The notes under the pieces were generated by a model. That model made no database searches and was not told the origin of the DNA. It saw only the letters and a program-made list of their open reading frames with translations. Position numbers and translations under genes: made by a program. A stretch of DNA of 60,218 bases from a virus: positions 1 to 60,218 of IMG/VR virus record IMGVR_UViG_3300036985_003389. One strand, 5' to 3'. Positions 5,204 to 35,678 of the stretch are shown here, piece by piece (the first letter of the stretch is position 1; every line of letters starts with the position of its first letter).

Positions 5204-5216
5204 GGAGAAGACCAGC

Positions 5217-17948: not shown

Positions 17949-18041
17949 GCTGATTCCCCAACGCAAAACACGTAGCCGCGCCGGGGGTCGCAGCCCCAGA
18001 CGACTAGCACGTGCCGATGATGATTTGAAGTGTCGTCTGAA

Positions 18042-21000
18042 CTACTTCACGCGGATGCGGCGGCTTCCCGAGACGCGCTCAGAGCCAGCGTCGCGCCAGC
18101 CCTCAAGCATCTCGTCGCGCAGCACCGGCCAGCCCTCGACCGTCTCTTTCCAGTCTGGGATGCGCACCTTCTGGAAGATTGTCGTACCGGAGGAGCCGCG
18201 GCTGACGCGCAGATCGAACTGGTTGGCCAGTTCCATCGATATGCTGGCCAGCAAGTCGATGGCCGGCTGAGGATCACGCAGCTTGCGAGTCGCGAACTGC
18301 TTATGCCTCAGCGCGATCAAGGCGTTTTCTGTTTCGATCGCGGCAAGCGTGTTCAGCACGTCGCGCGCCGAGTCGGCCTGCTTGGGCGTGAGCTTGATCG
18401 GCACCGGTTCCGTCCGGCTGCTGCTGTCGACCAGTCGCTCGGTCAGGATGTCGCCTTGCAGGCCCTTGACCACGCGCAGCATGTCACGGGCCCGGTTCAG
18501 CGGGTGCGCGTTCTTCTTTCGGTTGCTGGTTTGCTGCTCGATGACCGCATAGGCGCGAGCCTCGTCGCTCTCCAGCGTGGCCAGATAGGCGTTGGCCTGT
18601 GCCCGCCCGTTCTGATCGACGAGGCCGAGCTTCAGGTAGTGCTCGTAACCCTTGGCGGCTCGGATATAACCGTCGCCCTGCTTTCCCATCACCTCATAGT
18701 AGGCGCCGTGCGCGTCAGAGGCCCGGTCAGGATCGATCTGGAAGCGCTGCACCATCGTGCCGATCAGCGGGTACTCGATGATATTGCCGGTGCGCGGACC
18801 GTTCGGGCGCGAAACATTCGATGTCTTTTGGATGTCCTTGCCCCAATAGCCGAGCCCAGATTGCAAGGCGTAGTCGATAATAGCCGGCGTCAACTCGAAC
18901 TTGTTCTGGAAGATAGCCGATCCGACCTTTTCGACAGGCTTCTTGGCCGTGCTTTCGTTGACCATGCGCGACAATGATATCGCGAAATGCGATGCATAGG
19001 CACCGAACTGTTCCTGCGGCGGCAATGCCTGCATGTGCTCCGAGATGATCGACCGCTTGGACAGGCTGTTGTAGTTGGCACCGATGTCGCGCCACATGCG
19101 CACGGCTTGGGGAACGAGTGGCGGAGACAGCGAATCCCACAGCCCTTCGTTCACCCGCTCCCAGAAATTCGGATCGCCCTTCGTTTGCGCATCGATGGCG
19201 GCCTCGATGAAGATCGACGGGATGGCCAGCTCGAACGCCTTGGGGATCTGATACCACTCGCCGTTGATCTTGACCGGCTGGGCCTTGTTCTTGATGCGGG
19301 CGTTGATGCGCCGGTACTCGTCGTCATCGCGATAGAGCGCCATGAAGCTCAGCAGCACGCCCGTATAGAGCACGAGATTGGTCCAGGCCATGGCCGACGT
19401 GGCCAGCGCTTTCTCGGAATCGGCCGACAGAGGTAGGCCGTTCTGCTGCTTGTAGAACGGGGCCAACAGTTCGCGAACCGAATCGACCCGAGCAGCGGCG
19501 TGCGCCAGAATTGCCGCCGTGACCGTGCCAGCGATGGATCCGGCGATGGGCCCGCCGACGAGCGTACCGAGCGCACCGGCCACAACGATGGCGCCACCCA
19601 TCTTCGCGCTCGACAGTTCCTTGCCGCGATCGGACAAGGCGAGGAACGTCCGTTGGGCCTTGTCGAGGCCCTGGATCTGAGCATTGAGAAACGGCACCAG
19701 CTTAGCTGCAACCAGCATGCGTGATCCGTGTCGGCCGAAGTCGATCAAGTCGCGGGCAACGAATGCTGCCTCTTGTGCGGCTTGGTAGGGCGTGAGCGAG
19801 GGATTGTAGGCAAGCGCCGCCTTGTATGCCTGAGTGAACACACCAAGGCGCGTGGCCGTTTCCGACATATCCGAGAGGTAAGCCAGATTCGCGAACCACT
19901 TTGATGGACTGCCGCTCTGATGCGTGGCCGCGCCGACCATCGCGCCAGACATGGCACCAGCCGGGCCCATCATCATGCCGCCGGCAATGCCACCAGCCGC
20001 CATACTCAGCCCCATGCTCAGCGGCTTGATTTGAAGCCCCTTGGCCTTCAGTGCCATCACGTCGACCTTGTCGCGCGCAGCGGACAGCGCAGCCACGTTC
20101 TGGCCACCCATCAGGCCGGCTACCTCCTGGTAGAGGCGTGCCATGTCGGTCTGGGCCACCTCGTGGTAGAGGCCGCGAGCCTGCGTGATGATCGGCCACG
20201 TGCTCGGGTGCATGATGCTGCCCGTCAAGGTCCAGGCAGACACCATATCGCGAAGAATGTTGGTCGCGATGAATGCCGGATGGGTCGTGACGCCCATGCG
20301 CAGTAGTGTCGCTGGCTTCGCAATCATGTCGATCATCAGCGACGACATTTCACGGCCAATGCCGTTCAACGTCTCGACCACGCCGGCTGCAAATTCCGGA
20401 TCGTTGATCCGGATCATCTTGCGATCGCCATTCTCCCAGTACGGGATCAGCAATGGACGTTTGGCGCCAAAGCTGCCGGGTGCCCACTTGAGCAGTAGCT
20501 GCGTATCGGTAAAGTCGTGTTCGATGCGCTTGATCATCTCATCGGCATCGTGCGCGTCATAGCCGAGCGACACGAGATGCTCGCGAAGCCTATCGAACTC
20601 GGCCGCCGACGCCTCGACGATCTCGGACTGATCGACCACCTCGGCAATGGCCGATCCGCCAGGCCCGACACGCTCGGCCAGGGCCTTGAGTGACAGGATC
20701 ACCTCGTTGTAGTGCGTCGCCGCGGCACGGTGGAACGTCTGGTCCATGATCGTCTCGATCGGATGGATGACGTTGCGATCCGAGCCGAGGAACCGCTTGT
20801 CCTTCGAGAAGCGCTTGATGCCAGCCCCGCCCGGCCCGGCCGCGTCAGCATCCACGTCGGAAATGTCGCGGGCGAATGGCACATACCAATCCTTGCGCGT
20901 GCGGCGGTAGTCGACCTCCGCTTGCGTCAGGCGGCCGGCCTGCTGGTCGTGGAGCACCTGCTGCCACTGGAAGTCATAGACCATCTGAGCCGCGTCTTTG

Positions 21001-24000
21001 AATGTCGGGTTCTCGCTCTCCAGCCGCTCGATGCGCTGCTCGTGGATGTCCTGGCTGATGGCGTGGGGGTTGCGCTGCATGCCGTTCTTCTTCGTGTCGG
21101 CAAGCTCGGCGCTCAGTTCCCTGGCATAGGTGTCGATCCCCTTCAGGCGGTTGGCTGCATCCTCGGCCTGGGCCTGTAGCTGTTCGAGCATATTGCCCTG
21201 TGCCGACTCGCCGATCTCCCGCTCGTCTCGATCCGCAGTCACGCTTTCCATGCGGCGGACGGCATCGGCCTGCTTGCGCTCCCACATCGCAATCTGGCGC
21301 TGCTTGCGGCTGATCAGAGATTGCCGCTCATCCGAGTTCATGGCCGTTGCCATCTCGGCGCCGGCCAGCTCGTCCTTGAGTTGGTCCAGGCGCTGGCCGA
21401 TGTCGGCAAGCTCTTTCTCGGCTGCGGATGCCGAGCGCTGCCGGTCCTGGACCAGCGTCGCATCGCCGATCTGGCGCGAGATCAGGCGCTCGACCCGATC
21501 GGAAAGCTTTCGCGACAGGTCGGCAAGCGCCGGCCGAACCGCGTCGATGTTAGAAAGCTTTCCGGCAATATCGGCGATCTTGTACTGCTTGGCCGTCCAG
21601 ACCTTCCATTCCTCGGCCGCGCGCCGGCTTTCCAGATAGACACCGAACGACTGGTGCTTGCCAAGCGACCACGTCTTGCCCATGGCCAAGCTCAACGCAT
21701 CATGCAGCGATGGCGAGCGAAACGACGTGTCGCGATAGTTGGGCATGCCGTCCTGAATCCAGCGCAGCCCGGTCTTGAAGCTGTCGCCGATCGAACGCAT
21801 GAGCTTGTACGGGTTTTCGTGCACGGCAAGTGAGATGGCCCGGCCCTTGTCGTCAGCCTTCAGATTCTCGTCGGCGCGCGCCAGGAATTTACTGACGGCC
21901 AGATACCACTGGTGGTTCTGATCGACGCCAGCCTCATAGACCGCATGCGAGAATCCACTGATGGTCCGTGATTGCCCGATGCTCTCGTAGAAGTCGCTGA
22001 ACCGCTTCGTAAAGCTGTTGTCAGCCTCGCTCTTGAGGTTGGCATGTGCCCGTTCCAGATCGGTGGCGCGAATGTAGTCCTGCCATTCCTGACGCGATTG
22101 CAGCAGGTGCAACCGCTCGATGGCCTCCAGGATTTCAGGTCCGTGACCGTCCAGGAAGTCCTCGAACTCGGCCAGAAAGTTCGGTGCCATTTGCTGCACG
22201 TGATCTGGGCGCAGGATGTAGTCGCGGAAGAAATTAGCGAAGCCTTCCGATAGCTGGTTGCCCTGCTGTGTCGACAGCGCCTCGAGTTCGGCCCGGTGCC
22301 GCATTTTGATGTGCGCCAGATCGGTGCCGAACAGACGCTCGATGTGGTGGCCGCCCTCATGCGCCACGTTGTCGATGTCGGTGGACAGGCGATAGCGCTG
22401 AGTGCCCGTCAGACGGTCGTACTGGCCGGCAACGAACTGGGTTGGCCGGAACGTCCTCGACTTCTTGCCGGTTTGTACACCCTCGACAGTCAAGCCATAG
22501 AGGCCCTGTGTCGCATTCATGCCGAGCACGTCCTTCAGATTGGCGATGATCTCGGTGATGGGCTTGACCTTACGGTCGCGACCCTTGCCGAACATGAACT
22601 GCGGCGCGGCACCTCCACCACTGCCACCGTTATCATCGGCAATGGCCTGCTCCAACCCGATGAACTGCCAATTGCCACGGCCATCCCTGGCCCAGCCGGT
22701 GGACAGGAATATCTCGATCTCGGGAGAGCCATTGCTGGCCATGTCACGAGCTACGGCAAACGTGTCAGGATCGGCCGTGGGCTCATTTGGCATGGCTGTC
22801 TGACTGTCGTCGAACGCTCTGATGGAGAACAGAGGCATTCCGCCGAGCAGCTTCGTGACCGTGTTGGCGTAGTCGACGACGCTTGCCATGCTAGAGCCCA
22901 GGCTGACGCCGAGGCCATCTTGATCGGCCCGCGCCACCAGTTCGCTCGCGCGACGCGCAGCACCGCGAACGACGCCGAACAGCACATCCATGCGTGACTG
23001 AGCCAGCGCCTCCGGTGGAATACCGCGACGCAACTCGATCAGGTACTGTAGCCTGTCCGGCTCGTTCGCTGCTTCCATCGCAGCAATCATCCTGTCCAGT
23101 TGTGCCGGACCAATCCAGGCACCATCGAACATCGGCCCGCCATTGACGTGATGGGCAACACTCTCGCCATTGCGCTTCTGCCAGTAGCGATAGGCATCCT
23201 CGCTCAGCCAGCCATTGGACGAGACGACCGTGCTCAGATCACGCTCGACCGCATCAAACAGGGCCGAGCTGACACCGCGACCGAGCATCTCGTCTTTCAC
23301 ACGGATGCTGGCCACTTCATGCCGACCCATCGCGTCTCGACTGAGCACGAGCGAAGCCACACCATCGCCAATGCTGTAGGTGCGCAGTTCCGTGCCATCC
23401 TCGTTCGTGCGGATGCTCACACTGCCGGACATGCCTGCTGCCGAGAATGGCTGCTGCGTGGCTGGGCGTTGAACGGACGAGCCGAATGAAAATGAAGGTG
23501 TGCCACCCCACTGCTCCAGCACTGCCTGTCCAGCCGGCACATACAGGGCCAGAACCTGCGCTCGCTGCTCGAGTTGTTCCGGCGTGGTCAGGGACTTGAT
23601 TCGATCACGCAGCACGCCATCGGTCATGCGTGCGCGAATACCGGACACCTCGGCCCGCTCGAACAGGTCGGCAAGATCATTGAAGCCGTACTTGTTCAGC
23701 ACCGTCTTGATGGCCTGCATGATCTCGACCATGCGAGACAGCAAGGCATCGATCGCCGCGCCATAGCGGGTGCCGGACGACCAGTCCTGCGCCATCCGAG
23801 CAACGCGCTCCTGGTTCAGGCGCTCGACCACGAAGTCACGCACATCGCGCATGTCATTCATGCCCATGCGCCGAGCCTGCAGATAATAGGTCGTAGCATA
23901 TTCTGGCAATGCGGGATGGGATGTACCATCGGGGCGCAATGTTCGGATCTTCTCGTCGATCCCGATCTTGGCCGCCCGGTCAAGCAAGGACTTCCATTCA

Positions 24001-27000
24001 GCCGCTGTGAACGCGCCTGCCTCACGCAAGGCATGCACCGTCTCGTGCCATGCGCCACCGCGCGCCGTGTCTGGTCCGTACGCCAGCGTAACAGCCAGCA
24101 AGCGGCTGCCGTGCTCGTAGAAGCCGACCGGCTCGCCCTGGTCCTGCTGAGCCAGATGATCCGCCACACGGATTGCCACGTCGCGCGGGGCCATGCGCGC
24201 TATCTCAGCCTCGATGTCAGCGACGATCGCGGCCTTGCGCTCAGCGTAGCCAGGCCGGAATGAGCCGAGATTGCCGATCTGCGATTCCGCGGCTAGGCGA
24301 AAGAGGGGCTGGCCTTCCTCCATGACCGAACGCTTGACCGCCTCGGTCAGCGGGAATAGCGTGAAGCCCTTGCCAAGGCCAGTCTTGCCGCTTGGGCTGT
24401 CAAGAGTCTCGATCCTCTCGGGGGAAGGAGATGCCTTGTCGATCTTGGCGATCAAATTGCGAAGGTTCTTCGGGACAATGCCTTCGATCGCCGAGTTTTG
24501 AGCAACAAGCCGCTTAGCCGCCTTGAGGCCGGCTGCGTGCTCTTCCGCGGAAACACCGGAGGCGGCACCCTTCTCCAGTCTTTCAAGTTCACTCTTGTAA
24601 ACTTTCAGTTGTTTCGGCCTCTCGGCTCCGCCATAGAAGAACCGCATGCCAGCGTCGTCACCCGGATTATAGGACAGCACCGTATCGCCACTCGGGATGG
24701 CAATGTAGTCAGCCCCTGCCTCACTGGCCTGACGAATGGCACGGCGAAGGACAGTGTTAACCCACTGGTCAGTGGTGTTGACAAGGGGATTGCCGGGGGA
24801 ACCCGCTTCGGCAGTGGCAAGTTCAGCGCGAAGAAGACCTTGCTCAGAAATGGCGACATTCAAGTCAGTTGGCAGGCCGGTCGGATCGAGTTTTTTGATA
24901 CGGGCCAGGAAGCTCCGCACGTGGCCGGGAGGAATATCCTCGTATCGCGTTGCGCCAACGCTGTTTGTGAGGTTAGTCCAATCCATGCGCGACCTGTGGT
25001 CGGCGGGCAAGTCGGCAAGGTACTCGTCAATGTACGGCTTCGCCTGCGCCCGAAGATCGCCGACGCGATCATCTGCTGCTTTGGCCTTCGCCTTTAACTC
25101 AGCGATCTTCGCCTCGTCCCTGACGCCGCCATCGCGCAGATTCTGGCCCCAATCAGACTGAATCTGGTCAATCGTGAACACTGGCTTTCCACGATGCGTC
25201 GTCATAGACGTCATCATGTGGCCGATGATGTTGGGCTCGGGGAAATGACCAGATTGGAAGTTGCTGGCCTTGATCTCCTTCAATTCAGAAAGAAGTGCGG
25301 CATTCTCGCTTCTCGCTGCACGCAACGGTGCAAAGTCGGGGGTTGCCCGCAGATCCTTCGCCTGCTCGCTTATGTCATAAATGACGCGCTGATTTTCTTT
25401 CATACGCGCTTCAATTTCCTGCGCGCGTCGAGATTCCGGCAGATGCAGGACTGTCTCTCTGTATGTGGGGTTGGAAGAGTCGAGAGAGTGACGGGCCCAC
25501 TTGGTCGGGCCTGCTGCGCCAGACGGAACGGTGCTCGTTTCCGTGTAGGCTCCGCCACCGACAAGATCATTCATCATGTCGTCGTCGACTAAACCTCCGC
25601 CCAAGTCTTGCGTGTCGGTGGTTCCGTCGATCTGACCGCCATACTGCACTTCCTTCACCTGGACTCTATTCTCTTCCAGGAATTTGACGATTTCGGATTT
25701 AGTGACTTGTTTCAACGACGCCCGGCGGGGAGGAGACGCAGTGCGATCACCCTGGGGCTTCCATTCCCCAACAAAGGTGTCGCTCATGCGATCTTGCCCA
25801 GGGACAAGGGGGCGCATTTCGAGCGTCTCGATCACACCCTCTTTTGCGGGGGCCAGCAACTCACCAAGTTTTGTGGCTTCGATCTCTGCGTCCTTGACGC
25901 CAGCAGATTTGAGCTGTGCCAGCATTTGCTCTGGCGTGCCCTTGGCTTGCTTGAGCCCACGCGCTGCTTCCAGCGCCTTGCTGTAGTAGCCGAGTGCATC
26001 AAGATCGCGACGCATGGACTGGCCTGTGCCAGCATCCGGCGAGGATGGGCCACCGAACATGAACTGAGGTGTGCTGGTGTCGTCAGTGACTGGCGCCTGA
26101 GATGCGCCGGCAGTCAGCTGGCTAAGATCGGCCTCGGCTTTGGCGATCTCGGCCTGGGCTACTTCTTCTTGGGAGCCTTGTGCGGCTCCGCTTCGTTCAC
26201 CGCCGCGAGCAACCACTGGTCGTCGATCCACTCCATCCACTCGGGGGTTCCCCGAGGTGGCTCCGGCCCGAGGCCATAGTCCCTCGATTTCCAGTCCAGG
26301 AAGCCCGGCGACTTCCCACCGGTCGGCTCGCTCGTTGAAGGTGACTTTGGCGGTTTCATTGACCCTCCGATCCTCCTCTAGTATAGCAAGAAGCTTCGGA
26401 ATGTTCGAGTCTGTTAGGTCGAATTCCGTCGTCGGAACTGCACGGCCGGTCTTCCTCCAGCGCATGACTGCGCGTTCCATCGCCAGCGCCTTTGGCACAG
26501 ACACATGAACCACCGTGATCTGATAGCCATTGGCCGAGAACTGATCGACCAATTTATTGATACTGCTGCTGGAAGATCCAAGCTTTTCAACGATTATATT
26601 GCCGCCAGCGCTCACCATGCGCGCGACAGCATCCTTCATCATATTCGAGGCTTCTTCGTGCACGCCTCCGGAATTTTTGCCGTCGTCATATTCCGGGATA
26701 AGCAGCTTGGCATCGTCGCCGACCATGTGGGCCGCGCCGTGCCGTTCACCAACCTTCTTGGCAATGGTCGATTTGCCTGACCCTGGCATTCCCAGAAGAA
26801 TGAACAGCTTGCGCTCGTTCTTCTGCGCGCCTCCGGGAATCTTCTCGATCGCATCGTCAATCAGGAATTGAACGGCGTTGTCGTATCCAACGATTTCGCC
26901 CTGCGGCGTGTTGTAGGTACGCGCCGCCTTCCATTCTGGCGAGCCATAGCCTGGCTGTTTTTCCGTGTCCCGGCTCATGTCGGCAATGGTGGCCCGCGTC

Positions 27001-30000
27001 CATTCCTCGCTGTTCAGCGTCTGACGAATCGCGGCTTCGCGCTCGACATAGTCGGCCTCGGTGAACTTTTCCGGCGCCATCAATGTCCGATAGTAGGCAA
27101 GGAATTTCTGCCACTCCTGGCCGAGATAGGCTTGACCGCCGGCACTCGGATCGACAGGAGCCTTCTGCGAGAATGCGAAGTATTCCTTGTTGGCCCGATA
27201 GCGCGGCAACGACAGGCCGGCGCGCATCAGCGGAATCGCAGCCAAAGCCTTCGATGTCTTGCCGACACCATCCGCCCAGACATGATCGGTCATGTTGGTG
27301 CGCCACTCGATCCAGGCTGCGGTCTCCACCGGATCGGCATTCTCATCGTCGAGGCGCGCGGCAAGCTCCTCAGAGAATTGCTTGTAGGCAGCAGGCAAGT
27401 CTGCCACGCGCGTGTATGGGAACTTGTCGCTGTCGTCCTCGCGATAGAGAGCACCTTCCTTCAGAATGCCGCGATTGATCGCCAGTGCGATCTTGTCCAA
27501 TTCCTTGGCAAGTTCCGACGGCTTCAGAAGGGCCATCTGCTCGCGGCGCCGGTAGATGTCGGAGATCACACCCTGGAAATTCTCGACTGCGGAACGGGCG
27601 GCGAGATCCCCAGTCAGGCCTTCGGCCATCTGCCCGGCTTTGCCAACTGAGGCGCTGATGTCGACGATGCCGGCCGCCGTCCTGGACGTGGCCTTGAGAT
27701 TGGCCATGCCCTGTTCGACGTAAGCAGCCTCTGCCTTCGCATCATCGGGTGACTGCGTCTTGCCGAACTTGAGCACGCCCTCTAAGCGCTGCAGGCGCCT
27801 TGTTTTGCGGCGCAGTTCATCTGCACGCGGGAACGGTGTTGGCTGTGCTGCCTTGTCCAGGCCCGGCAGTTCCGTTTCCCAGCGCGCTATCCTGCCGCGT
27901 TGCATCTCGATGTGCTCGGGGATGGCGGCCACCATGCGCTCCCAGCGACGCACAAGCTGCACCGGATCGCTGGTCTCCGTGATCAGGAACGAGTCCATGG
28001 GGCTGTAGTCACGAACACCGACGATCTCGGGCTTGACCAGGATGCCATCGCTGGTGCGCTTGACGATCGCCTTCATCTGGAAGCCGGAGATGGTGCCGAT
28101 CTCGCTATCAGATCCGTAACCACCCCAGATTCTCGACCCAACGCCATGCAGATAGCCGCGGATCGCCTCGCCCGCCTTCTTGCGCTCCTTGAACCCGACG
28201 GGCCCGTCCGTGCCAACATCCAGTGTCACGCTGAACTTGTCGCCGGCCAGGTCCGTGACCTTCAGCGCATCTTCTTCATATGGGGCAAGATCAGCCTTGC
28301 TCTTTTCATTCATCGACCGGATCGTCGCGGCATTGGCTGCGGCGGCCTTGTGGCTCCGAACGTGGCCGCGTTCGGCCACCTGGAGCTGGCGCACCTCGCG
28401 CGACAACTCGGCATGCTCCATAATCAGCGGATTGCCGGTTGCTGCAGCTTTGAGCTCAGCCGCTTCTGGCAACGGCGGGTTGATATCCTCAGCATTTCGC
28501 ACGCCGAGCGCACCAGCGAACATTTGGCCAATAAAGATGGATTTGCGGTCAAGCAGCTGCCACCGGTAGGCATCGAACGAGCGCTTGGTGATGTAGCGCA
28601 GAATGCGAACTTCCGGGTTCTTGTTGCCCTGCCTGAGAATTCGGCCGTCGCGCTGCTCAACATCGGCTGGCTTCCACGGGGCATCGAGGTGGTGCATGGC
28701 GATCAACTGGCGCTGGACGTTGGTGCCAACGCCCATCTTGCCGGTCGATCCGAACAGCACACGCACCTCGCCGTTGCGCACCCTCTCGAACAGCTTGGCC
28801 TTCTTGTCATCGGTGTTCGCGTCGTGAATGAACGCGATCTGATCGGCGGGAATGCCCTTCTCGATCAGTCGGACCTTCATGTCCTCATAGAGATTGAACT
28901 TGCCGACCAGCATGGCCTTTGCTTCAACCTCGGCCTCGTCAACCTCGGCTTCAACCTCGGCATCCTCACTCGTCCCGCGCGCCTCATCGAGCAACTCGCG
29001 ACGGATTACATCGGCGATGTCAGTATCGACTGTGGCGCCAGATGTTCCAGTCGCTGGCGTGACCGTCGAACGCCTACCCCTTGAGCCAGGAACGCCCATG
29101 TCTAAAAAGACCAGCTGCGCCTTGTTGGGCGCGGCCGGATCGACGTTGCCGTCCTTCCAGATGTCGAAGATATTGCTGACCGCTCGACCGATCTTGCCAG
29201 TCGGATTGAACGGCGCGGTTGGATCTACCAAGCGCATGTCGGTTGCGAGCTGAATGCCCTTGGTGAACAGGGAAATGAACGGCGCACCCTCGCCCGGCTT
29301 CTTTCCCTTGGCCTCCTCCATCTCCTCGATCAGGCCTTGGATGGCCGATTCTTCGGTTTCGGATAGATCAACCTCGACAGCTTCGATTTTGCCCCCCTTC
29401 AGATTTGGGCGTGGCAGCTTCAGCATGTCAGCGGTCTGGGTATCCATGACCTCGCCGACGAGGCTCATCAGTTCTGGCATGTTGACGAACTGAGAGAACG
29501 ATTCCGTATCGACCCAATCGCGGGAATTCGATGACAGCTCGGATTTGGTGACGATCTTGCCGAACGTGCCGGCCCACGAATCGAATTGATGCAGGCCATA
29601 CTTGCGCAGCATTGGCCCCTGCAGATAGCGCTGCATCGTGTAAAGCTCGGCCATCGTGTTGGATACTAGCGTACCCGTCATGAACACAGCTGACCGGCCC
29701 GGCCGACTCTTTTCCAGATGCCCCATCTTCACATAGAGATCAGTGGCACGCTTAGACTCGCCCTTGTTCGAAATGCCCCTCACGCGACCATGACGAGTGG
29801 CGAAGTGCAGTGATTTGAACGTGTGGGCCTCGTCGACGAACATGAAATCGACACCCAGCTCCTCAAACGTTACGCCGTCGTCCTTCGACTCCTCGTCAGT
29901 CAATCTTTTCAGCCTGTTCTCAAGGCGTTTCTTGGCTTTTTCCAGATCCTTGACGGTCGGCGAATCTTCGCCCTCGTCTTTGGCTGCCTGATCTTTGGCG

Positions 30001-33000
30001 TCGAGCAAGTCCTGAATCTGCAGCTCGTAGTATTCGCGATACGTATCAGGCGACATGCCGACACGCGTGAACGCCGAGTGCGTGATGATGATGCCGTCCC
30101 ACGTGTCGGAAGCGACCTTGGCCGCAAACTCCCGGCGCCGATCACGGGACATCTGATCCTTGGTTGCAACCAGCAGCTTGGCATTCGGATAGGCTTGGTA
30201 GAACTCCGTCGAGAACTGCTCCAGCATGTGGTTCGGAACGACGAACATCGGGCGCTGCACCATGCCCAGACGCTTCATCTCCATGGATGCCATGATCGCC
30301 GTCCAGGTCTTGCCGGACCCGACAACGTGATTGAACAGCGTGTTGCCGCGCTGGATTACGCGCCAGATTGCATTGACGCGATGTGGCAGGAGATTGATCG
30401 TGCCTGTCGTGCCGTCGGGGAACGTGACGACACGGGCAAGCCCTGGAAATGTCAGATGCGAACCATCGTACTTCTGCGGCACGATGCGATTGAAGGTGTG
30501 ATTGTAAAGCTTTTCGAGTCGATCGGCCCGCTGCATGTCTTCCCATGCCCAGCCGTCAACGCCAAGATCCGAGTTGCCTGAAAACAAGTCTCGAATGGCA
30601 TCGATCTTAGCACGCGCCTCGGCTTCTGCCTCGGGGACGCGCACGCGGGTTTCGCCTTCCTCGCTCTGGACTGTATCTGTAATCACGACCGTATTGGAAT
30701 TGAGCGCATAATCCAGTATCTGGACAAGATTTTTTCGCGCTGTTCCGTAAGTATCGTTTGCCGCCAACGGGAAGTGACCAGACAGAACATTCCAGCGCGC
30801 ATTGGCCTCGTTGTAGACGAGCTCGACGCGGTGGCCTCCCAGCTTTTCCTCAAGGAATTTTTCATAGACCTCAGCTGGCACCCATGGGGCGCCAAACGGA
30901 ATCGTGATCTCAGACCTCGTGAGCTGTTCCGGCTGCACCTTTTCGAGAGATTCGACGTTGCGTCGATACCGCATAGGATCAAGCTCGGCTGCGATGCGCG
31001 CTTGGTCCAGTTTTTCGACGACATCGCCAGCCAGATACTCGGCATTGGTCTGCCAGATCTCGCCAGCCGGGTTCTCAAACACCTGATCGTCGAGGGACGC
31101 AATGGCCTCAGCTTGGTTGAGCCCGAGGCGCTTAGCGATCAACGGCATATCAACCTTGCCGGTCTCGTTCAGAGAAACGGCCAGGGCATCCGACGGCCCC
31201 GTGATGGCCGGTGTCTGGTAGGAGCCGACGATATCCTGATTGAAGATTGCCGCCTTCTTCGCGGTATCGGACTTCTCGTCGTAGACCTCGACCGCAGCCA
31301 CTTTGAAAGCGTCTGGATCTTCCTGGAACAGCGACAATGTCGGCTTGCGCCGGATGACAACCTCTTTGCCATCCTTGCGCGTCTGCTTGGTCACGATCGT
31401 GCGATTGATCGGCCCGTACCTCTCGACAAAATCATCATAGGCCTTGCCGAGCGCCTCCCGGTAGTCGTCCATACCAGCGCGATCGCCGCGCGCCTGCTTG
31501 GCCAGCATGTCATTGACGATGCTACGCAGGCCTATGAACCCGCGAACCTTGGCAGCAGCTTCCTTGCCGAAATTCTGTGGCTCGCCAACACCCTGCACCT
31601 TCCGATAGAGCGTGCCGTCCTTTTCGTAGAACGAGCCTTCCTTGATGCCGTCCGTCTCGGTATCAACATCCTGGCGCGGCTGATCGACGGCGGCAACGCC
31701 ACGCGGGATCATGGAGCCGGCCGGAATGTTGTCGGCGATGGCGTTGACGACCTTCATGCCGAGGCCGTCCGTAGAGCCGATCAGCACCGGCTCGCCCTTG
31801 CCGTACATCTTGCCAATCAGGCGCATCTTGCCGAGCATCATGTCGGGATGGGCCGCGAAGTAACCGTTGATGTCGGTCGCACCTTCCGGCGTCTTCACTT
31901 CAGACAGCGTGCGCCATTCCGGATTGCGATCTGGCTCGCCCTCCATCTTCTTGCGGAAGAAGATGATATCGGTGGTCACGTCCGTTCCGGCATTGGCCTT
32001 GAACGCGCCCTGGTTGCCGCCCGGCAAACGCACGGCGCCGAGGAACGTACCGCGCCTGTCCATCTCGCGCCGCGCCATCGTGCCGGCCTTGTCGAGCGTG
32101 CCGCTCGACGTGATGAAGGCAACGATGCCACCAGGCCGAACCTTGTCGAGCCCCTTGATGAAAAAATAATCGTGTAGCGTGAACTTGTTCTTGTAAGTCG
32201 GATCGTATGGACCTTCAGCGGCGAACGGCACATTCGAGATGGCCAGATCAAAATGATTGTCCGGCCACTTTTGCGTCTCGAAACCAGCAACGCGCACGTC
32301 GGCTGCCCCGTAGAGCGCCTTCGTGATCTCACCGGACAGGATATCGAGTTCGACCGCAGTCCACGCCGTATCGGCCCGCAGCTTGCCCGGCATGAGCCCA
32401 ATGAAGTGACCGATGCCAGCGGCCGGTTCGATCACGCGACCGCCCTTGAAACCCATGTGCTCCAAAGCGTCCCACATGGCCGTAATGACCTCAGGGGACG
32501 TGTAATGTGCGTTCGTGGTCGATGCTCGTGCTGCCGCATATTCGGCCGGCGTCAGCAAGTCTTTCAGCGCGTTGCGCTCGGCCTTCCATTCCGGCTTGTG
32601 ATCGGCGAACACGTCCTGGCTGAAAGCACCCCAACCCACATATTTGACGAGCTTGGCCTTTTCCTCGACCGTAGCCGGGCGCTTTTCTTCCTGCAGAACG
32701 CGAAGGATGCGAATCGCATCGATATTGCCGCGGACCTTGGCCTTGGGCCCGCCCTTGCCGATCTGGTCGGCCGGCGTGATCTGATAGTTTAGCGTCTCCC
32801 GGTCAGCACGAGCCAGCTCCTGCCGCTCGATCTCGGCGGCAACCTGATCGGCAACGGCTGCCTGTTGCTCGTCACTCAGGCTCGCGGAAGCGGGAGGTGG
32901 ATTAGCTCCGAGTTCACGATCTCCCGCACCTGTTCCGGTATTGCCTCCGTCACCTTCACCCTCTCCAGGTAGTCCGTCGGCAGGTCCGGATTGTCCATCA

Positions 33001-35678
33001 TCTGTGCGAACAGGTCGTCCCACATCTCCGTCGCTTCCTCCCCGATCTGCGAGAGGTGTTCCGCCAGCCGGCCCGATTTCTCCATTTCCTGATACTGCAT
33101 CGGATACGCCTTCTTCAGGAACTCTCTGCGCATCACCTCGAAGTGTTGTGCTGACGGCATTGGCGGCCCTCTCCGATCGCGTATCGAATAATGCTTTCAG
33201 CCTAACAAAAGCATCGCCCTTTGTCTTGGCCTTGAATCTCGTGCCCGTGTAGGCCGTGACGATCTCGTCCAGCACCTTCTTGGTGACAGCACGATCCTTG
33301 CGGATATCGGTCATGACAGCCGTGAACGCCGACTGATCGGTGCCGGCCGTTTCGAGCATGCCAGCGTAGTCCTTGGCAATCTCGGTCAGCTTGGTCCCGG
33401 TCTGGCGCTCGATGCTCTCGGCGCGCTTGAGCGCACGGAATGACGGATCGATCGTGATGGAAAACCCGCCATCGAACGTCTGCTTCGTGACTGGACCCGG
33501 CTCAGTGGCCGGCAGCTGCACAGTCTGTGCCGTCTTGGCCTTGGGCGTGCGCCTGATGGCCCCCTTCGCATCAACCCGGATCAGCCCTTGCTTGGCTGCC
33601 GCGTCGAGCATGGGCTTCATCTGAGCATCGGACACACCGAGCTGCTTGGCCCATGACTTGGCTGGCGTCTTGCCTGCGATGAGGCTGGCAAGCTGGGATT
33701 GTGGATTGGGTGGCGCGGCTGGGCCAGCAGGCTGGCCGCTGGTGGCCCCCCGGTCAGTCTTTAGATTGTTGGTCTCGTGATCGTATCGATCCAGAGATTG
33801 CCGGTAATAGGCCATCTCGGCCTTGCGCTCTGGCGTAGTCCCGTAGTCCCGCTCGTTCCCGAACGCAGACGTCTGGGCACGGCTTGCCCCGTTCTCACGC
33901 ACGGCCTTGTCGGCAATCGCATCGATCGCAGCCCGCCGTTCTACTGACAGGCCATCGCTGGAGGCCAGCGCGGGCTCCGGAGCGGCACTGCCGGCAAACA
34001 GGTCGGTCTGTCCCGCTTCAATCTCAGCCTGACGTGTCCGGCCGCGCTGCAATCCGTCCATGGTCTCGGACAGGTCGTCACGCTCGGCGACCAGATGCCG
34101 CCGCCTGGACGCGGCGGGGCCCTTGATGGCCGGACCGAGTGCTGCAATCTCCTGCTCGATCTCGGCCACCCGAGCCGTGCCACCGCGAATCGCCCGGTCA
34201 TACTCGACCGTGCTGTCCATCTCGACACTGGCCGTTGCCGTCGCGCCGTCCCATGCCTGGACTTCCTTGGCCCGCTCCAGTGCCTCGGCATCGGTGGCTT
34301 GTGCCACCTCCTGCTTGACCTGCTGCGCCATCAGCCCGTGCTTCTGGGCCGTCTCGGGATCGGCCGTGCGCACGAAATTGGCGACATCATCGAGATAGGG
34401 ATCGGGCGTGGCTGCCTTGGCCGGCGGTGCTTGCTCGTCCTTGCGCAATTGCGGTGATGAGCCGGGGCGCGCCTTGCCATCAGGTTCAGTCAGATAGGTT
34501 GCCGAGTCCGGGCCTTCCGTCGGCGTGGCTGGTCCGTCCGGCTTCTTTTCCGGTCGATTGCGCACCAGTGCACGGCTGCCGCCCTCTAATGGGCCGCCTG
34601 CGATGGCGCCCTGGATGAAGCTTTCCAGCATCTGGCTTTCGATCCCCTTCAGGAGATCGTCATGTGCCACGCCATAGGCATCGGCCAGCGAGCGCGTCTT
34701 GGCGTAGACCGGCGCCGTCAATTCAAGCGCGGTCTGGAGAAATTCGGTCGTTCCTTCCTTGACGCCACCGGCAGCGAAGCCCTTGACGAGGCTCTTGATC
34801 AGGTGATCCGAGACCTCCTTCTTGGCCTCGTGACTAAACGCCGTCATGATCTGCTTGAAACCCGGAATGTATTCCAGGGCACCGTGGGCAATACCGGCCG
34901 CATACAAAACGTCCTCGTGATCTTCCGGCTTCACGCCGTTGTCATCGAATGCCTTCCTGATCGCGCCAATACCCATTGTCGGCAGCAACACCGGCAGTAC
35001 CGCGCCACCGCTCGCAATGCCGGCCGCCACGATTGGCACGATCGAACCCATACCCTTGAAGAACGTGCTGTGCGCATATTCGCCAAGATCTGAAACGAAA
35101 TTCTCCTTACGGATATCGGCAGCGCTCTGCGGCGCTGATGGCTTCCAAAAAGGATTCTTGAGAAGCTCCTCGTTCTGATCAGCCATAGACTTGCCGTAGC
35201 CGGCAACGCCTTGGGAGATCGACTCGCCGAGCGAACCATCGTCAGTTCGCCTAGCTACGCTCTCGCCCATAGTTTGCATGCCGCGACCGAACTCACTTGC
35301 AACACCACGCGTCCCCTGAATGAAGCTCTTGCCTGTTTGGGTCGTAGCCGGGCCAATGACCGCATGCCCTGCAACCGTGCCGGCCACCGACGCCAAATCT
35401 CTAGACAGGTCATTCGCGAACGTATCGTTCTCCCAGCTTTGACGAGCCCAGTCGACCACTGCCGAGCCGATCGAATCGAAGAAACCACGCTCATGGCTCG
35501 ATCTCTGCTCAGCTTGACGCTGCTGCATCGTCTCGCTGATAATCTCGTCCGTGCCAGGAACCGCCGTCACTGGCGCCACCGGGGAACGAGGCATTTCAGT
35601 CATGCTGGGTGACGCACCGCCACTGTCCAGCGACCTCAATTCGTTGAGTAGATCGTCGTCGTTTCTATCGTCAGCCAT
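18042..35678 (-). CDS. Giant polyvalent virion protein (methyltransferase-helicase-kinase-peptidase, DarB-like)
   Basis: A 5878-residue protein (17.6 kb). In order it has: an N-terminal part with a hydrophobic stretch (about 205-235); an N6-adenine methyltransferase (VIEPAAGIGHF about 1083, DLAISNVPFA about 1146); an SNF2-type helicase (VVGSGKTWTAI about 1786, FVDEAHTF about 1947, QRDGRILRQGN about 2343); a zeta-like P-loop kinase (GMPGSGKSTIAKK about 2966); a domain with TIDQIQSDWGQ (about 3506); a zincin motif HETVH (about 3877); a GNAT-like segment (about 4130); a second zincin motif HEGGH (about 4443); coiled coil (about 4630-4830); and a C-terminal LPD38-like region with membrane helices (about 5236, 5376, 5437). 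It follows the M15 virion protein and precedes the fibre, the place of T7 gp16, so ejection into the host is likely. DarB of P1 protects DNA from restriction. Confidence 0.85.
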   Translation of the reverse strand: MADDRNDDDLLNELRSLDSGGASPSMTEMPRSPVAPVTAVPGTDEIISETMQQRQAEQRSSHERGFFDSIGSAVVDWARQSWENDTFANDLSRDLASVAGTVAGHAVIGPATTQTGKSFIQGTRGVASEFGRGMQTMGESVARRTDDGSLGESISQGVAGYGKSMADQNEELLKNPFWKPSAPQSAADIRKENFVSDLGEYAHSTFFKGMGSIVPIVAAGIASGGAVLPVLLPTMGIGAIRKAFDDNGVKPEDHEDVLYAAGIAHGALEYIPGFKQIMTAFSHEAKKEVSDHLIKSLVKGFAAGGVKEGTTEFLQTALELTAPVYAKTRSLADAYGVAHDDLLKGIESQMLESFIQGAIAGGPLEGGSRALVRNRPEKKPDGPATPTEGPDSATYLTEPDGKARPGSSPQLRKDEQAPPAKAATPDPYLDDVANFVRTADPETAQKHGLMAQQVKQEVAQATDAEALERAKEVQAWDGATATASVEMDSTVEYDRAIRGGTARVAEIEQEIAALGPAIKGPAASRRRHLVAERDDLSETMDGLQRGRTRQAEIEAGQTDLFAGSAAPEPALASSDGLSVERRAAIDAIADKAVRENGASRAQTSAFGNERDYGTTPERKAEMAYYRQSLDRYDHETNNLKTDRGATSGQPAGPAAPPNPQSQLASLIAGKTPAKSWAKQLGVSDAQMKPMLDAAAKQGLIRVDAKGAIRRTPKAKTAQTVQLPATEPGPVTKQTFDGGFSITIDPSFRALKRAESIERQTGTKLTEIAKDYAGMLETAGTDQSAFTAVMTDIRKDRAVTKKVLDEIVTAYTGTRFKAKTKGDAFVRLKALFDTRSERAANAVSTTLRGDAQRVPEEGVSDAVSGNGEIGPAGGTPLADRGGSDGDVGRPVRTDDGQSGPADGLPGEGEGDGGNTGTGAGDRELGANPPPASASLSDEQQAAVADQVAAEIERQELARADRETLNYQITPADQIGKGGPKAKVRGNIDAIRILRVLQEEKRPATVEEKAKLVKYVGWGAFSQDVFADHKPEWKAERNALKDLLTPAEYAAARASTTNAHYTSPEVITAMWDALEHMGFKGGRVIEPAAGIGHFIGLMPGKLRADTAWTAVELDILSGEITKALYGAADVRVAGFETQKWPDNHFDLAISNVPFAAEGPYDPTYKNKFTLHDYFFIKGLDKVRPGGIVAFITSSGTLDKAGTMARREMDRRGTFLGAVRLPGGNQGAFKANAGTDVTTDIIFFRKKMEGEPDRNPEWRTLSEVKTPEGATDINGYFAAHPDMMLGKMRLIGKMYGKGEPVLIGSTDGLGMKVVNAIADNIPAGSMIPRGVAAVDQPRQDVDTETDGIKEGSFYEKDGTLYRKVQGVGEPQNFGKEAAAKVRGFIGLRSIVNDMLAKQARGDRAGMDDYREALGKAYDDFVERYGPINRTIVTKQTRKDGKEVVIRRKPTLSLFQEDPDAFKVAAVEVYDEKSDTAKKAAIFNQDIVGSYQTPAITGPSDALAVSLNETGKVDMPLIAKRLGLNQAEAIASLDDQVFENPAGEIWQTNAEYLAGDVVEKLDQARIAAELDPMRYRRNVESLEKVQPEQLTRSEITIPFGAPWVPAEVYEKFLEEKLGGHRVELVYNEANARWNVLSGHFPLAANDTYGTARKNLVQILDYALNSNTVVITDTVQSEEGETRVRVPEAEAEARAKIDAIRDLFSGNSDLGVDGWAWEDMQRADRLEKLYNHTFNRIVPQKYDGSHLTFPGLARVVTFPDGTTGTINLLPHRVNAIWRVIQRGNTLFNHVVGSGKTWTAIMASMEMKRLGMVQRPMFVVPNHMLEQFSTEFYQAYPNAKLLVATKDQMSRDRRREFAAKVASDTWDGIIITHSAFTRVGMSPDTYREYYELQIQDLLDAKDQAAKDEGEDSPTVKDLEKAKKRLENRLKRLTDEESKDDGVTFEELGVDFMFVDEAHTFKSLHFATRHGRVRGISNKGESKRATDLYVKMGHLEKSRPGRSAVFMTGTLVSNTMAELYTMQRYLQGPMLRKYGLHQFDSWAGTFGKIVTKSELSSNSRDWVDTESFSQFVNMPELMSLVGEVMDTQTADMLKLPRPNLKGGKIEAVEVDLSETEESAIQGLIEEMEEAKGKKPGEGAPFISLFTKGIQLATDMRLVDPTAPFNPTGKIGRAVSNIFDIWKDGNVDPAAPNKAQLVFLDMGVPGSRGRRSTVTPATGTSGATVDTDIADVIRRELLDEARGTSEDAEVEAEVDEAEVEAKAMLVGKFNLYEDMKVRLIEKGIPADQIAFIHDANTDDKKAKLFERVRNGEVRVLFGSTGKMGVGTNVQRQLIAMHHLDAPWKPADVEQRDGRILRQGNKNPEVRILRYITKRSFDAYRWQLLDRKSIFIGQMFAGALGVRNAEDINPPLPEAAELKAAATGNPLIMEHAELSREVRQLQVAERGHVRSHKAAAANAATIRSMNEKSKADLAPYEEDALKVTDLAGDKFSVTLDVGTDGPVGFKERKKAGEAIRGYLHGVGSRIWGGYGSDSEIGTISGFQMKAIVKRTSDGILVKPEIVGVRDYSPMDSFLITETSDPVQLVRRWERMVAAIPEHIEMQRGRIARWETELPGLDKAAQPTPFPRADELRRKTRRLQRLEGVLKFGKTQSPDDAKAEAAYVEQGMANLKATSRTAAGIVDISASVGKAGQMAEGLTGDLAARSAVENFQGVISDIYRRREQMALLKPSELAKELDKIALAINRGILKEGALYREDDSDKFPYTRVADLPAAYKQFSEELAARLDDENADPVETAAWIEWRTNMTDHVWADGVGKTSKALAAIPLMRAGLSLPRYRANKEYFAFSQKAPVDPSAGGQAYLGQEWQKFLAYYRTLMAPEKFTEADYVEREAAIRQTLNSEEWTRATIADMSRDTEKQPGYGSPEWKAARTYNTPQGEIVGYDNAVQFLIDDAIEKIPGGAQKNERKLFILLGMPGSGKSTIAKKVGERHGAAHMVGDDAKLLIPEYDDGKNSGGVHEEASNMMKDAVARMVSAGGNIIVEKLGSSSSSINKLVDQFSANGYQITVVHVSVPKALAMERAVMRWRKTGRAVPTTEFDLTDSNIPKLLAILEEDRRVNETAKVTFNERADRWEVAGLPGLEIEGLWPRAGATSGNPRVDGVDRRPVVARGGERSGAAQGSQEEVAQAEIAKAEADLSQLTAGASQAPVTDDTSTPQFMFGGPSSPDAGTGQSMRRDLDALGYYSKALEAARGLKQAKGTPEQMLAQLKSAGVKDAEIEATKLGELLAPAKEGVIETLEMRPLVPGQDRMSDTFVGEWKPQGDRTASPPRRASLKQVTKSEIVKFLEENRVQVKEVQYGGQIDGTTDTQDLGGGLVDDDMMNDLVGGGAYTETSTVPSGAAGPTKWARHSLDSSNPTYRETVLHLPESRRAQEIEARMKENQRVIYDISEQAKDLRATPDFAPLRAARSENAALLSELKEIKASNFQSGHFPEPNIIGHMMTSMTTHRGKPVFTIDQIQSDWGQNLRDGGVRDEAKIAELKAKAKAADDRVGDLRAQAKPYIDEYLADLPADHRSRMDWTNLTNSVGATRYEDIPPGHVRSFLARIKKLDPTGLPTDLNVAISEQGLLRAELATAEAGSPGNPLVNTTDQWVNTVLRRAIRQASEAGADYIAIPSGDTVLSYNPGDDAGMRFFYGGAERPKQLKVYKSELERLEKGAASGVSAEEHAAGLKAAKRLVAQNSAIEGIVPKNLRNLIAKIDKASPSPERIETLDSPSGKTGLGKGFTLFPLTEAVKRSVMEEGQPLFRLAAESQIGNLGSFRPGYAERKAAIVADIEAEIARMAPRDVAIRVADHLAQQDQGEPVGFYEHGSRLLAVTLAYGPDTARGGAWHETVHALREAGAFTAAEWKSLLDRAAKIGIDEKIRTLRPDGTSHPALPEYATTYYLQARRMGMNDMRDVRDFVVERLNQERVARMAQDWSSGTRYGAAIDALLSRMVEIMQAIKTVLNKYGFNDLADLFERAEVSGIRARMTDGVLRDRIKSLTTPEQLEQRAQVLALYVPAGQAVLEQWGGTPSFSFGSSVQRPATQQPFSAAGMSGSVSIRTNEDGTELRTYSIGDGVASLVLSRDAMGRHEVASIRVKDEMLGRGVSSALFDAVERDLSTVVSSNGWLSEDAYRYWQKRNGESVAHHVNGGPMFDGAWIGPAQLDRMIAAMEAANEPDRLQYLIELRRGIPPEALAQSRMDVLFGVVRGAARRASELVARADQDGLGVSLGSSMASVVDYANTVTKLLGGMPLFSIRAFDDSQTAMPNEPTADPDTFAVARDMASNGSPEIEIFLSTGWARDGRGNWQFIGLEQAIADDNGGSGGGAAPQFMFGKGRDRKVKPITEIIANLKDVLGMNATQGLYGLTVEGVQTGKKSRTFRPTQFVAGQYDRLTGTQRYRLSTDIDNVAHEGGHHIERLFGTDLAHIKMRHRAELEALSTQQGNQLSEGFANFFRDYILRPDHVQQMAPNFLAEFEDFLDGHGPEILEAIERLHLLQSRQEWQDYIRATDLERAHANLKSEADNSFTKRFSDFYESIGQSRTISGFSHAVYEAGVDQNHQWYLAVSKFLARADENLKADDKGRAISLAVHENPYKLMRSIGDSFKTGLRWIQDGMPNYRDTSFRSPSLHDALSLAMGKTWSLGKHQSFGVYLESRRAAEEWKVWTAKQYKIADIAGKLSNIDAVRPALADLSRKLSDRVERLISRQIGDATLVQDRQRSASAAEKELADIGQRLDQLKDELAGAEMATAMNSDERQSLISRKQRQIAMWERKQADAVRRMESVTADRDEREIGESAQGNMLEQLQAQAEDAANRLKGIDTYARELSAELADTKKNGMQRNPHAISQDIHEQRIERLESENPTFKDAAQMVYDFQWQQVLHDQQAGRLTQAEVDYRRTRKDWYVPFARDISDVDADAAGPGGAGIKRFSKDKRFLGSDRNVIHPIETIMDQTFHRAAATHYNEVILSLKALAERVGPGGSAIAEVVDQSEIVEASAAEFDRLREHLVSLGYDAHDADEMIKRIEHDFTDTQLLLKWAPGSFGAKRPLLIPYWENGDRKMIRINDPEFAAGVVETLNGIGREMSSLMIDMIAKPATLLRMGVTTHPAFIATNILRDMVSAWTLTGSIMHPSTWPIITQARGLYHEVAQTDMARLYQEVAGLMGGQNVAALSAARDKVDVMALKAKGLQIKPLSMGLSMAAGGIAGGMMMGPAGAMSGAMVGAATHQSGSPSKWFANLAYLSDMSETATRLGVFTQAYKAALAYNPSLTPYQAAQEAAFVARDLIDFGRHGSRMLVAAKLVPFLNAQIQGLDKAQRTFLALSDRGKELSSAKMGGAIVVAGALGTLVGGPIAGSIAGTVTAAILAHAAARVDSVRELLAPFYKQQNGLPLSADSEKALATSAMAWTNLVLYTGVLLSFMALYRDDDEYRRINARIKNKAQPVKINGEWYQIPKAFELAIPSIFIEAAIDAQTKGDPNFWERVNEGLWDSLSPPLVPQAVRMWRDIGANYNSLSKRSIISEHMQALPPQEQFGAYASHFAISLSRMVNESTAKKPVEKVGSAIFQNKFELTPAIIDYALQSGLGYWGKDIQKTSNVSRPNGPRTGNIIEYPLIGTMVQRFQIDPDRASDAHGAYYEVMGKQGDGYIRAAKGYEHYLKLGLVDQNGRAQANAYLATLESDEARAYAVIEQQTSNRKKNAHPLNRARDMLRVVKGLQGDILTERLVDSSSRTEPVPIKLTPKQADSARDVLNTLAAIETENALIALRHKQFATRKLRDPQPAIDLLASISMELANQFDLRVSRGSSGTTIFQKVRIPDWKETVEGWPVLRDEMLEGWRDAGSERVSGSRRIRVK
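26159..26359 (-). CDS. Tryptophan-rich small ORF nested in the giant gene (other frame)
   Basis: A 66-residue ORF out of frame with the giant gene, over its linker after the P-loop kinase (giant residues about 3106-3173, reading GATSGNPRVDGVDRRPVVAR). The nested product has a protein-like composition: FLDWKSRDYGLGPEPPRGTP, then EWMEWIDDQWLLAAV and a Lys-rich end. Upstream of its ATG lies AGAGGAGGATCGGAGGGTCA, an unusually rich Shine-Dalgarno region. I do not recognise the family. As with the ORF at 32.9-33.2 kb, a good start signal and sensible sequence coincide with a low-complexity stretch of the host frame. Confidence 0.45.
   Translation of the reverse strand: MKPPKSPSTSEPTGGKSPGFLDWKSRDYGLGPEPPRGTPEWMEWIDDQWLLAAVNEAEPHKAPKKK
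32876..33160 (-). CDS. TnpV-like small ORF nested in the giant gene (other frame)
   Basis: A 94-residue ORF in a different frame from the giant gene, over its low-complexity linker (giant residues about 840-934, Gly/Asp/Pro-rich) just before the methyltransferase. It reads like a real helical protein: RREFLKKAYPMQYQEMEKSG, RLAEHLSQIGEEATEMWDDL, then PEQVREIVNSELIH. That order resembles the TnpV family (a RREYLK start, SGKLxxHL and an EIVxNELIY end). The ATG has GGAGAGG seven bases upstream. The giant frame here is compositionally poor, so the nested frame may carry the information. It is either a true overprinted gene or the relic of a separate gene before the giant gene was fused. Confidence 0.5.
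   Translation of the reverse strand: MPSAQHFEVMRREFLKKAYPMQYQEMEKSGRLAEHLSQIGEEATEMWDDLFAQMMDNPDLPTDYLERVKVTEAIPEQVREIVNSELIHLPLPRA

What the first reader, a model, noticed from the sequence alone, without database searches (positions are those of the whole stretch)
18042..35678. 5878-residue polyvalent protein in the T7 gp16 position
A single gene fills 29 percent of the window and combines a DarB-like methyltransferase-helicase, a zeta-like kinase, two zinc-peptidase motifs, a GNAT-like segment and an LPD38-like membrane region. Its place between the M15 virion protein and the fibre implies it is packaged and injected, giving a multi-function anti-defence payload.
Basis: partly seen in the sequence, partly recalled or inferred. 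Interest (0 to 1): 0.7.

Follow-up and report, generated by a model that had tools for sequence, protein, structure and literature searches.

The report
Giant DarB-type podophage ejection protein
A short-tailed phage carries a 5878-residue protein in the slot of the T7 DNA-ejection protein gp16, joining a conserved ejection tail to a long payload headed by an anti-restriction enzyme; such giant phage proteins are known, but this combination is a new variant that suggests ejection proteins act as interchangeable delivery vehicles.

Summary
ORF 18042-35678(-), 5878 aa, is one open frame in a 60,218-bp virus record. Profile searches confirm a DarB-type LPD36-methyltransferase-helicase (aa 958-2660; 34-57% identity to relatives, direct BLAST match to P1 DarB), a zeta/PNK-type kinase (aa 2952-3110), two zincin motifs conserved in relatives (HETVH 3878; HEGGHH 4440 with E4478), a GNAT (aa 4071-4176) and LPD38 (aa 5452-5624). 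The position claim is supported: tail tubes A and B, a GNAT, internal virion protein B and an M15 protein lie upstream, a T7-type fibre downstream. The C-terminal ~1000 aa is a widespread module (at least 439 IMG/VR stretches) of gp16-position proteins, without sequence homology to T7 gp16. GC3 breaks at aa 4400, where payload meets zincin plus core. In another phage the aa 3215-3999 cassette sits inside a true T7 gp16 homologue. Packaging and injection are inferred: JC1's 4515-aa DarB homologue was found in virions. The kind is known (Bcep22-type giants, polyvalent proteins); this is a new variant. Function is untested.

The parts
18042..35678 (-). Giant polyvalent gene, 5878 aa, in the internal-virion-protein-D (T7 gp16) slot
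32829..35678 (-). aa 1-950: N-terminal, largely low-complexity region with one hydrophobic stretch (aa 209-240); aa 663-728 matches L033; otherwise no match
27699..32807 (-). aa 958-2660: DarB-type LPD36 + N6-adenine methyltransferase + SF2/SNF2 helicase
32223..32234 (-). aa 1149-1152 NVPF, methyltransferase motif IV; the same four residues occur in P1 DarB
28287..30530 (-). aa 1717-2464 helicase (GSGKT, DEAH aa 1949, QRDGRILRQG aa 2342)
26349..26825 (-). aa 2952-3110 zeta-toxin / polynucleotide-kinase-type P-loop kinase
24279..26036 (-). aa 3215-3800 'IQSDW' domain: no Pfam family, at least 384 IMG/VR stretches, model resembles GNAT acetyltransferases with a helical insertion
23628..24221 (-). 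aa 3820-4017 zincin 1 (HETVH at aa 3878)
23151..23468 (-). aa 4071-4176 GNAT
22662..22787 (-). aa 4298-4339 LPD23, below Pfam's cut-off (E 9e-5)
   Evidence: strong LPD23 in L004
22179..22421 (-). aa 4420-4500 zincin 2 (HEGGHH aa 4440, LSEGFANF with E4478), at the payload/core junction
   Evidence: GC3 break at aa 4400
18045..21131 (-). aa 4850-5878 C-terminal ejection-core module shared by gp16-position proteins
18807..19325 (-). aa 5452-5624 LPD38, just after hydrophobic helices aa 5358-5448
35982..38384 (-). 800-aa protein with M15 peptidase, in the IVP-C (gp15) slot
38351..38905 (-). internal virion protein B (phrog_418)
38892..39302 (-). 136-aa acetyltransferase-like protein in the gp13 slot
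39292..41937 (-). tail tube B (phrog_376)
41938..42540 (-). tail tube A (phrog_394)
12660..17966 (-). tail fibre with T7-type N-terminus

Best explanation
The gene encodes the innermost ejection protein (internal virion protein D, T7 gp16 slot) of a short-tailed phage, enlarged by a payload of about 4400 residues. Proposed mechanism: several copies are packed in the head with internal virion protein B and the M15 murein peptidase. On infection the C-terminal helical module (aa ~4850-5878, with LPD38 and membrane helices) enters the inner membrane and helps pass the DNA, and the rest is carried into the cytoplasm. There the DarB-type methyltransferase-translocase acts on the incoming DNA and shields it from restriction, most likely type I, as P1 DarB does. 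The zincin at the junction (aa 4440) and a second one (aa 3878) may cut payload from core. The kinase and GNAT domains modify unidentified host or phage targets. Shown here: domain content, synteny, conservation of the zincins, the module boundary, and homology to P1 DarB. Inferred: packaging, injection, enzymatic activity, cleavage.
For: DarB core: phrog_10089 E 8.7e-190 and 0; 34-57% identity to DarB-like giants of PEp14, POI1126, Atu_ph08, VvAW1, JC1, L004; BLAST to P1 DarB E 1e-21; motif I, NVPF, GSGKT, DEAH and motif VI present, and P1 DarB also has NVPF. Slot: tail tube A-tail tube B-GNAT-IVP B-M15-giant-fibre, the order seen in pelagiphage Lederberg and podovirus ct8d5349. Core module at the C-terminus of 985-3756-aa ORFs in IMG/VR; of 22 loci with more than 4.5 kb upstream, 17 have tail tube B and 13 IVP B; a T7-type fibre follows in 10. 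Zincin 2 and its third ligand EGFAE[FW] conserved in 8 relatives directly before the core. GC3 splits best at aa 4400; core 0.80 is like structural genes 0.76 (p 0.12), payload 0.70 differs (p 2e-5). Same aa 3215-3999 cassette inside a phrog_342 (T7 gp16) homologue with tail tube B and IVP B upstream. Published: JC1 gp69 in purified virions, 51 peptides (PMC9144972); P1 DarB in virions (PMC9024508).
Against: No proteomics or phenotype exists for this phage. The C-terminal module has no detectable sequence homology to T7 gp16 (hhalign E 0.26-0.36) and PDB fold matches are only coiled coils. JC1-type giants end in a different way: of the DarB-bearing cultured-phage giants compared, only VvAW1 shares this C-terminal module, so their proteomics transfers by DarB homology and position, not by the core. 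In L004 the junction zincin has lost HExxH and the methyltransferase half lies 4.5 kb upstream of the rest, so neither is indispensable. A chain of about 640 kDa (my estimate) must pass a short-tail channel.
Confidence: 0.7

Rival explanations
1. The chain is a polyprotein: the zincins cut it during assembly, so that only the C-terminal core (and perhaps some pieces) enters the virion, as DdrB of P1 is thought to be processed.
For: Two zincins with conserved motifs, one exactly at the payload/core junction; Iyer et al. propose MPTase processing of polyvalent proteins and of DdrB (PMC5512222).
Against: In JC1 the DarB-like giant is among the best-covered virion proteins (51 peptides, 15.6% coverage, PMC9144972), though peptides do not show that the chain is uncut. 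L004 lost the junction motif.
Confidence: 0.3
2. The methyltransferase-helicase is packaged but does not protect against restriction; it acts in DNA entry (translocation) or host takeover.
For: An ATP-driven translocase on an ejection protein could pull DNA in; the kinase and GNAT domains have no anti-restriction precedent; the L004 methyltransferase half is split off.
Against: All methyltransferase motifs are kept, and the archetype P1 DarB protects DNA in cis from EcoB/EcoK (PMC5512222, PMC9024508).
Confidence: 0.2
3. The protein is not packaged; it is made in the infected cell as a late enzyme that happens to lie in the structural operon.
For: No virion data for this phage (inference only; no tool result supports it).
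Against: It takes the IVP-D slot itself: no other candidate lies between the M15 protein and the fibre; short relatives in this slot consist of the same module alone; JC1 homologue in virions (PMC9144972).
Confidence: 0.06
4. The long frame is a metagenomic assembly chimera joining a Bcep22-type DarB gene to another phage's gene.
For: GC3 changes at aa 4400; the record is a single contig without read data.
Against: L004 carries DarB (56-57%) and the same core (26%) in one 4922-aa frame, VvAW1 carries both, and the joins lie in frame over 5878 codons.
Confidence: 0.04

Closest known systems
Giant DarB-like virion proteins of Bcep22-type podophages (JC1 gp69 4515 aa, POI1126 gp30 4841 aa, Atu_ph08 gp21 4877 aa, PEp14 4914 aa, 8P 5145 aa)
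   Same: DarB-type methyltransferase-helicase of 34-39% identity in a 4500-5200-aa chain among virion genes; JC1 gp69 found in virions
   Different: The one Pfam-scanned here (POI1126) has its own murein hydrolases (Hydrolase_2, M15), InPase, LPD3 and LPD39; all compared except VvAW1 lack the LPD38-type C-terminal module. Here the M15 is a separate gene and the chain carries kinase, GNATs and zincins
L004 (IMGVR_UViG_2623620426_000002), 4922 aa
   Same: Closest relative: DarB core 56-57%, same C-terminal module, GNAT, zincin 1, LPD23
   Different: Has ART-PolyVal, no kinase match, junction zincin lost HExxH, intein-like insertion in helicase Walker A, methyltransferase half 4.5 kb upstream
Polyvalent proteins (Iyer et al. 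2017, PMC5512222)
   Same: Unrelated enzyme domains in one chain; methylase-helicase dyad, zincins, LPDs and zeta kinase are all described there
   Different: In the passages read the paper does not place them on the gp16-slot ejection core, and does not describe the IQSDW domain as a GNAT-type fold
P1 DarB (2255 aa)
   Same: Homologous methyltransferase and helicase, same NVPF motif IV
   Different: No ejection core; packed in a myovirus head by an N-terminal signal together with other Dar proteins (PMC9024508)
T7 gp16
   Same: Gene slot between gp15-type protein and fibre; membrane segments; large innermost ejection protein
   Different: 1318 aa; transglycosylase at the N-terminus; no detectable sequence homology

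Membership tests
DarB-type methylase-helicase dyad | LPD36 with GxG[GAS], gamma-class adenine methyltransferase, SNF2-type SF2 helicase in this order | tested here: met
   GWGA, YTSPE, EPAAGIGHF, NVPF, GSGKT, DEAH, QRDGRILRQG; BLAST and HMM match to P1 DarB
DarB-type methylase-helicase dyad | Motif IV NPP(Y/F) as stated by Iyer et al. | tested here: inconclusive
   NVPF here; P1 DarB itself has NVPF, so the variant does not argue against activity
DarB-type methylase-helicase dyad | Protects DNA in cis from type I restriction; present in virions | not testable with these tools
   needs virions and restriction assays
Polyvalent proteins | Several biochemically unrelated domains in one chain of an invasive element, in a late-gene context | tested here: met
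   methyltransferase, helicase, kinase, two zincins, GNATs, LPD38; late operon
Polyvalent proteins | Transferred to the host with the DNA | not testable with these tools
   inferred from synteny and from the JC1 virion proteome
Internal virion protein D / T7 gp16 | Gene slot after gp14/gp15-type genes and before the fibre | tested here: met
Internal virion protein D / T7 gp16 | Sequence homology to T7 gp16 / phrog_342 | tested here: not met
   no phrog_342 match; hhalign E 0.26 with T7 gp16 and 0.36 with L196 gp16. It works like, but is not shown to be, a gp16 homologue
LPD38 gp16-slot family (phrog_9854 / PF18857) | Conserved C-terminal module with N..RD, F.NA..QG, IPKPFE motifs | tested here: met
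Zincin-like MPTase | HExxH plus downstream Glu | tested here: met
   zincin 2: HEGGH...E4478 conserved in 8 relatives; zincin 1: HETVH conserved in L004, L080, L049, L076, L090, L094
Zeta toxin (UNAG kinase) | Zeta fold with Walker A; phosphorylates UDP-GlcNAc | tested here: inconclusive
   PF06414 E 9.5e-23 but Pnkp1 fits almost as well in the PDB search; substrate not testable
GNAT (aa 3215-3800) | GNAT fold with acetyl-CoA binding | tested here: inconclusive
   model pLDDT 66, pTM 0.51; many independent GNATs at Z 6.6-9.6 (ICL2 9.6, rmsd 3.1, 133 residues; FemA 8.9, rmsd 12.8, 168; AtaT 8.3, rmsd 3.9, 132); no sequence match

The most novel reading that the evidence does not exclude
Podophage gp16-slot ejection proteins are a general delivery chassis: swappable enzyme cassettes are attached to, or inserted into, unrelated ejection cores, and a conserved zincin at the cassette/core junction releases the cargo after injection.
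Probability: 0.3. Interest if true: 0.75.

Novelty: new variant of a known kind. Interest (0 to 1): 0.5.

Why it matters
If right, it ties two literatures that are usually kept apart: podophage ejection proteins (structural biology of DNA entry) and polyvalent counter-defence proteins. It predicts that the cargo of a short-tailed phage can be read off the gene between IVP-C and the fibre, and it shows natural fusion points on ejection cores. It also points to a widespread unnamed phage domain (at least 384 IMG/VR stretches) that looks like an acetyltransferase.

Tried and rejected
Homology of the C-terminal module to T7 gp16: not found by hhalign with T7 gp16 or with the L196 gp16 half, nor by profile against the PDB. 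Fold search of the C-terminal model gave only coiled coils in the PDB; BFVD gave other LPD38 phage proteins. Nucleotide search of the giant gene against phages: none; C-terminus against plasmids: none. Single-sequence pattern scans for the C-terminus and the middle found no relatives; the alignment-based scans did. The idea that NVPF marks a dead methyltransferase was dropped because P1 DarB has the same residues. AcrF2 (E 0.49), DinB, MccV and RuvA matches are noise. Gill et al. 2011 (Bcep22) and Hardies et al. 2016 (phiRIO-1) are not held in the library. The zincin 2 stretch alone finds nothing in the PDB by sequence.

Full report
Observation. The frame at 18042-35678 (-) is open over 5878 codons, with a chance probability of about 10^-73 at this base composition. 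The window is a whole 60,218-bp IMG/VR record, so the gene takes 29% of it.

Domains. PHROGs put aa 889-2660 in phrog_10089 'DarB-like antirestriction' (E 8.7e-190 and 0). Pfam finds ResIII and Helicase_C, Zeta_toxin (E 9.5e-23) and LPD38 (E 3.9e-20), and LPD23 below its cut-off. tblastn against cultured phages finds the DarB part in 116 records, at 34-39% identity for those listed, and the C-terminal 1378 aa in only four records at 1e-5. A ten-sequence alignment shows the methyltransferase and helicase motifs conserved. Motif IV reads NVPF where most relatives have NPPF. P1 DarB, the experimentally established anti-restriction protein, also reads NVPF, and BLAST aligns it to the window protein directly (E 1e-21 for the methyltransferase, 5e-15 and 2e-14 for the helicase).

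Zincins. HEGGHH at aa 4440 is followed by LSEGFANF with E4478. Eight relatives keep HExxH and EGFAE[FW], directly before the core module; L004 lost the HExxH, and the short pelagiphage-type proteins lack the domain. HETVH at aa 3878 is conserved as HExxHA in L004, L080, L049, L076, L090 and L094.

An unannotated domain. Aa 3215-3800, with the motif [DE]xIQSDWxQ, has no Pfam or PDB sequence match but occurs in at least 384 IMG/VR stretches, also in proteins of about 730-840 aa. The AlphaFold2 model (pLDDT 66, pTM 0.51) aligns with many independent GNAT acetyltransferases: ICL2 GNAT domain Z 9.6, FemA 8.9, FemX 8.6, AtaT 8.3, TacT 7.9, GCN5 7.8. I read it as a GNAT-type fold with a helical insertion. 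Foldseek alone gave no significant PDB match, so this is a lead. A second, ordinary GNAT lies at aa 4071-4176.

Position. The genes are tail tube A (phrog_394), tail tube B (phrog_376), an acetyltransferase-like 136-aa protein, internal virion protein B (phrog_418), an 800-aa protein with an M15 peptidase, the giant, and a fibre with T7-type N-terminus. Pelagiphage Lederberg and podovirus ct8d5349 have the same order, with 1254- and 1280-aa proteins in the giant's place, and these match the giant's C-terminal module. An alignment-based scan found at least 439 IMG/VR stretches that encode the module. In the fetched loci it sits at the C-terminus of closed ORFs of 985-3756 aa. Of 22 loci with more than 4.5 kb upstream, 17 have tail tube B and 13 IVP B upstream; of 65 with more than 1 kb downstream, 10 have the T7-type fibre directly downstream.

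Core and cargo. Third-position GC along the giant splits best at aa 4400. The part after aa 4420 (0.80) is like the structural genes (0.76, p 0.12); the part before (0.70) is lower than both (p about 2e-5). The domain boundary was set at 4420 before this test, but amino-acid make-up can also affect GC3. Payloads differ among relatives: L033 has ART, LPD37, ROS_MUCR and LPD38; L004 has DarB, GNAT, LPD23, ART and LPD38; L050 has the kinase. In a different 54.9-kb record, G003, the window's aa 3215-3999 cassette (39% identity) lies inside a 2672-aa protein that matches the T7 gp16 family phrog_342 on both sides (E 5.6e-99), and tail tube B and IVP B precede it. This links the cassette to the gp16 slot independently. 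The window's own C-terminal module is not detectably homologous to gp16, so 'gp16-like' means slot and role only.

Packaging and injection. Not shown here. The best precedent is JC1 gp69 (4515 aa), found with 51 unique peptides in CsCl-purified virions (PMC9144972), and P1 DarB in the P1 head (PMC9024508). T7 gp16 enters the cell envelope and is thought to project into the cytoplasm (PMC8954989).

Known or new. Giant DarB-like virion proteins and polyvalent proteins have been described (PMC9144972, PMC6630229, PMC5512222; Gill et al. 2011 known only by citation). This case differs in joining DarB to the LPD38-type gp16-slot core with a junction zincin; DarB with this core was seen here otherwise only in L004/L035 and, more weakly, in VvAW1. 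I file it as a new variant of a known kind.

Noticed in passing
L196 7155-15173 (G003, 54.9-kb virus record): A T7-gp16-family protein (phrog_342) of 2672 aa is interrupted between profile positions of about 730 and 742 by an insert of some 1500 aa with ART, zincin and IQSDW domains; this is close to the gp16-C region where T7 mutations affect genome entry (PMC8954989).
   Followed up: partly
L004 7294-22062, aa about 606-925: An intein-like insertion with a LAGLIDADG domain sits exactly in the Walker A motif (GSGK/T) of the DarB-type helicase.
   Followed up: no
L004 1900-7471: The methyltransferase half of DarB (63% identity) lies 4.5 kb upstream of the rest, separated by three ORFs without Pfam matches; split gene, insertion or intron not resolved.
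   Followed up: partly
window 24279-26036 and loci L113-L192: The 'IQSDW' domain has no Pfam family, is found in at least 384 virus-contig stretches and is predicted to have a GNAT-type fold.
   Followed up: partly
window 35688-35978 (+): A 96-aa ORF with hydrophobic segments runs on the opposite strand in the 300-bp gap before the giant gene; POI1126 and JC1 also have small opposite-strand genes next to their giants.
   Followed up: no
window 3668-6044 (+): Transposase plus ATPase pair that matches IS5376 (IS21 family; ATPase E 1.9e-27): an insertion sequence within the phage record.
   Followed up: partly
window 38892-39302 (-): Acetyltransferase-like 136-aa gene in the T7 gp13 slot; GNAT-annotated genes occupy this slot in Lederberg and ct8d5349, and lie in the virion modules of JC1 and POI1126.
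   Followed up: partly
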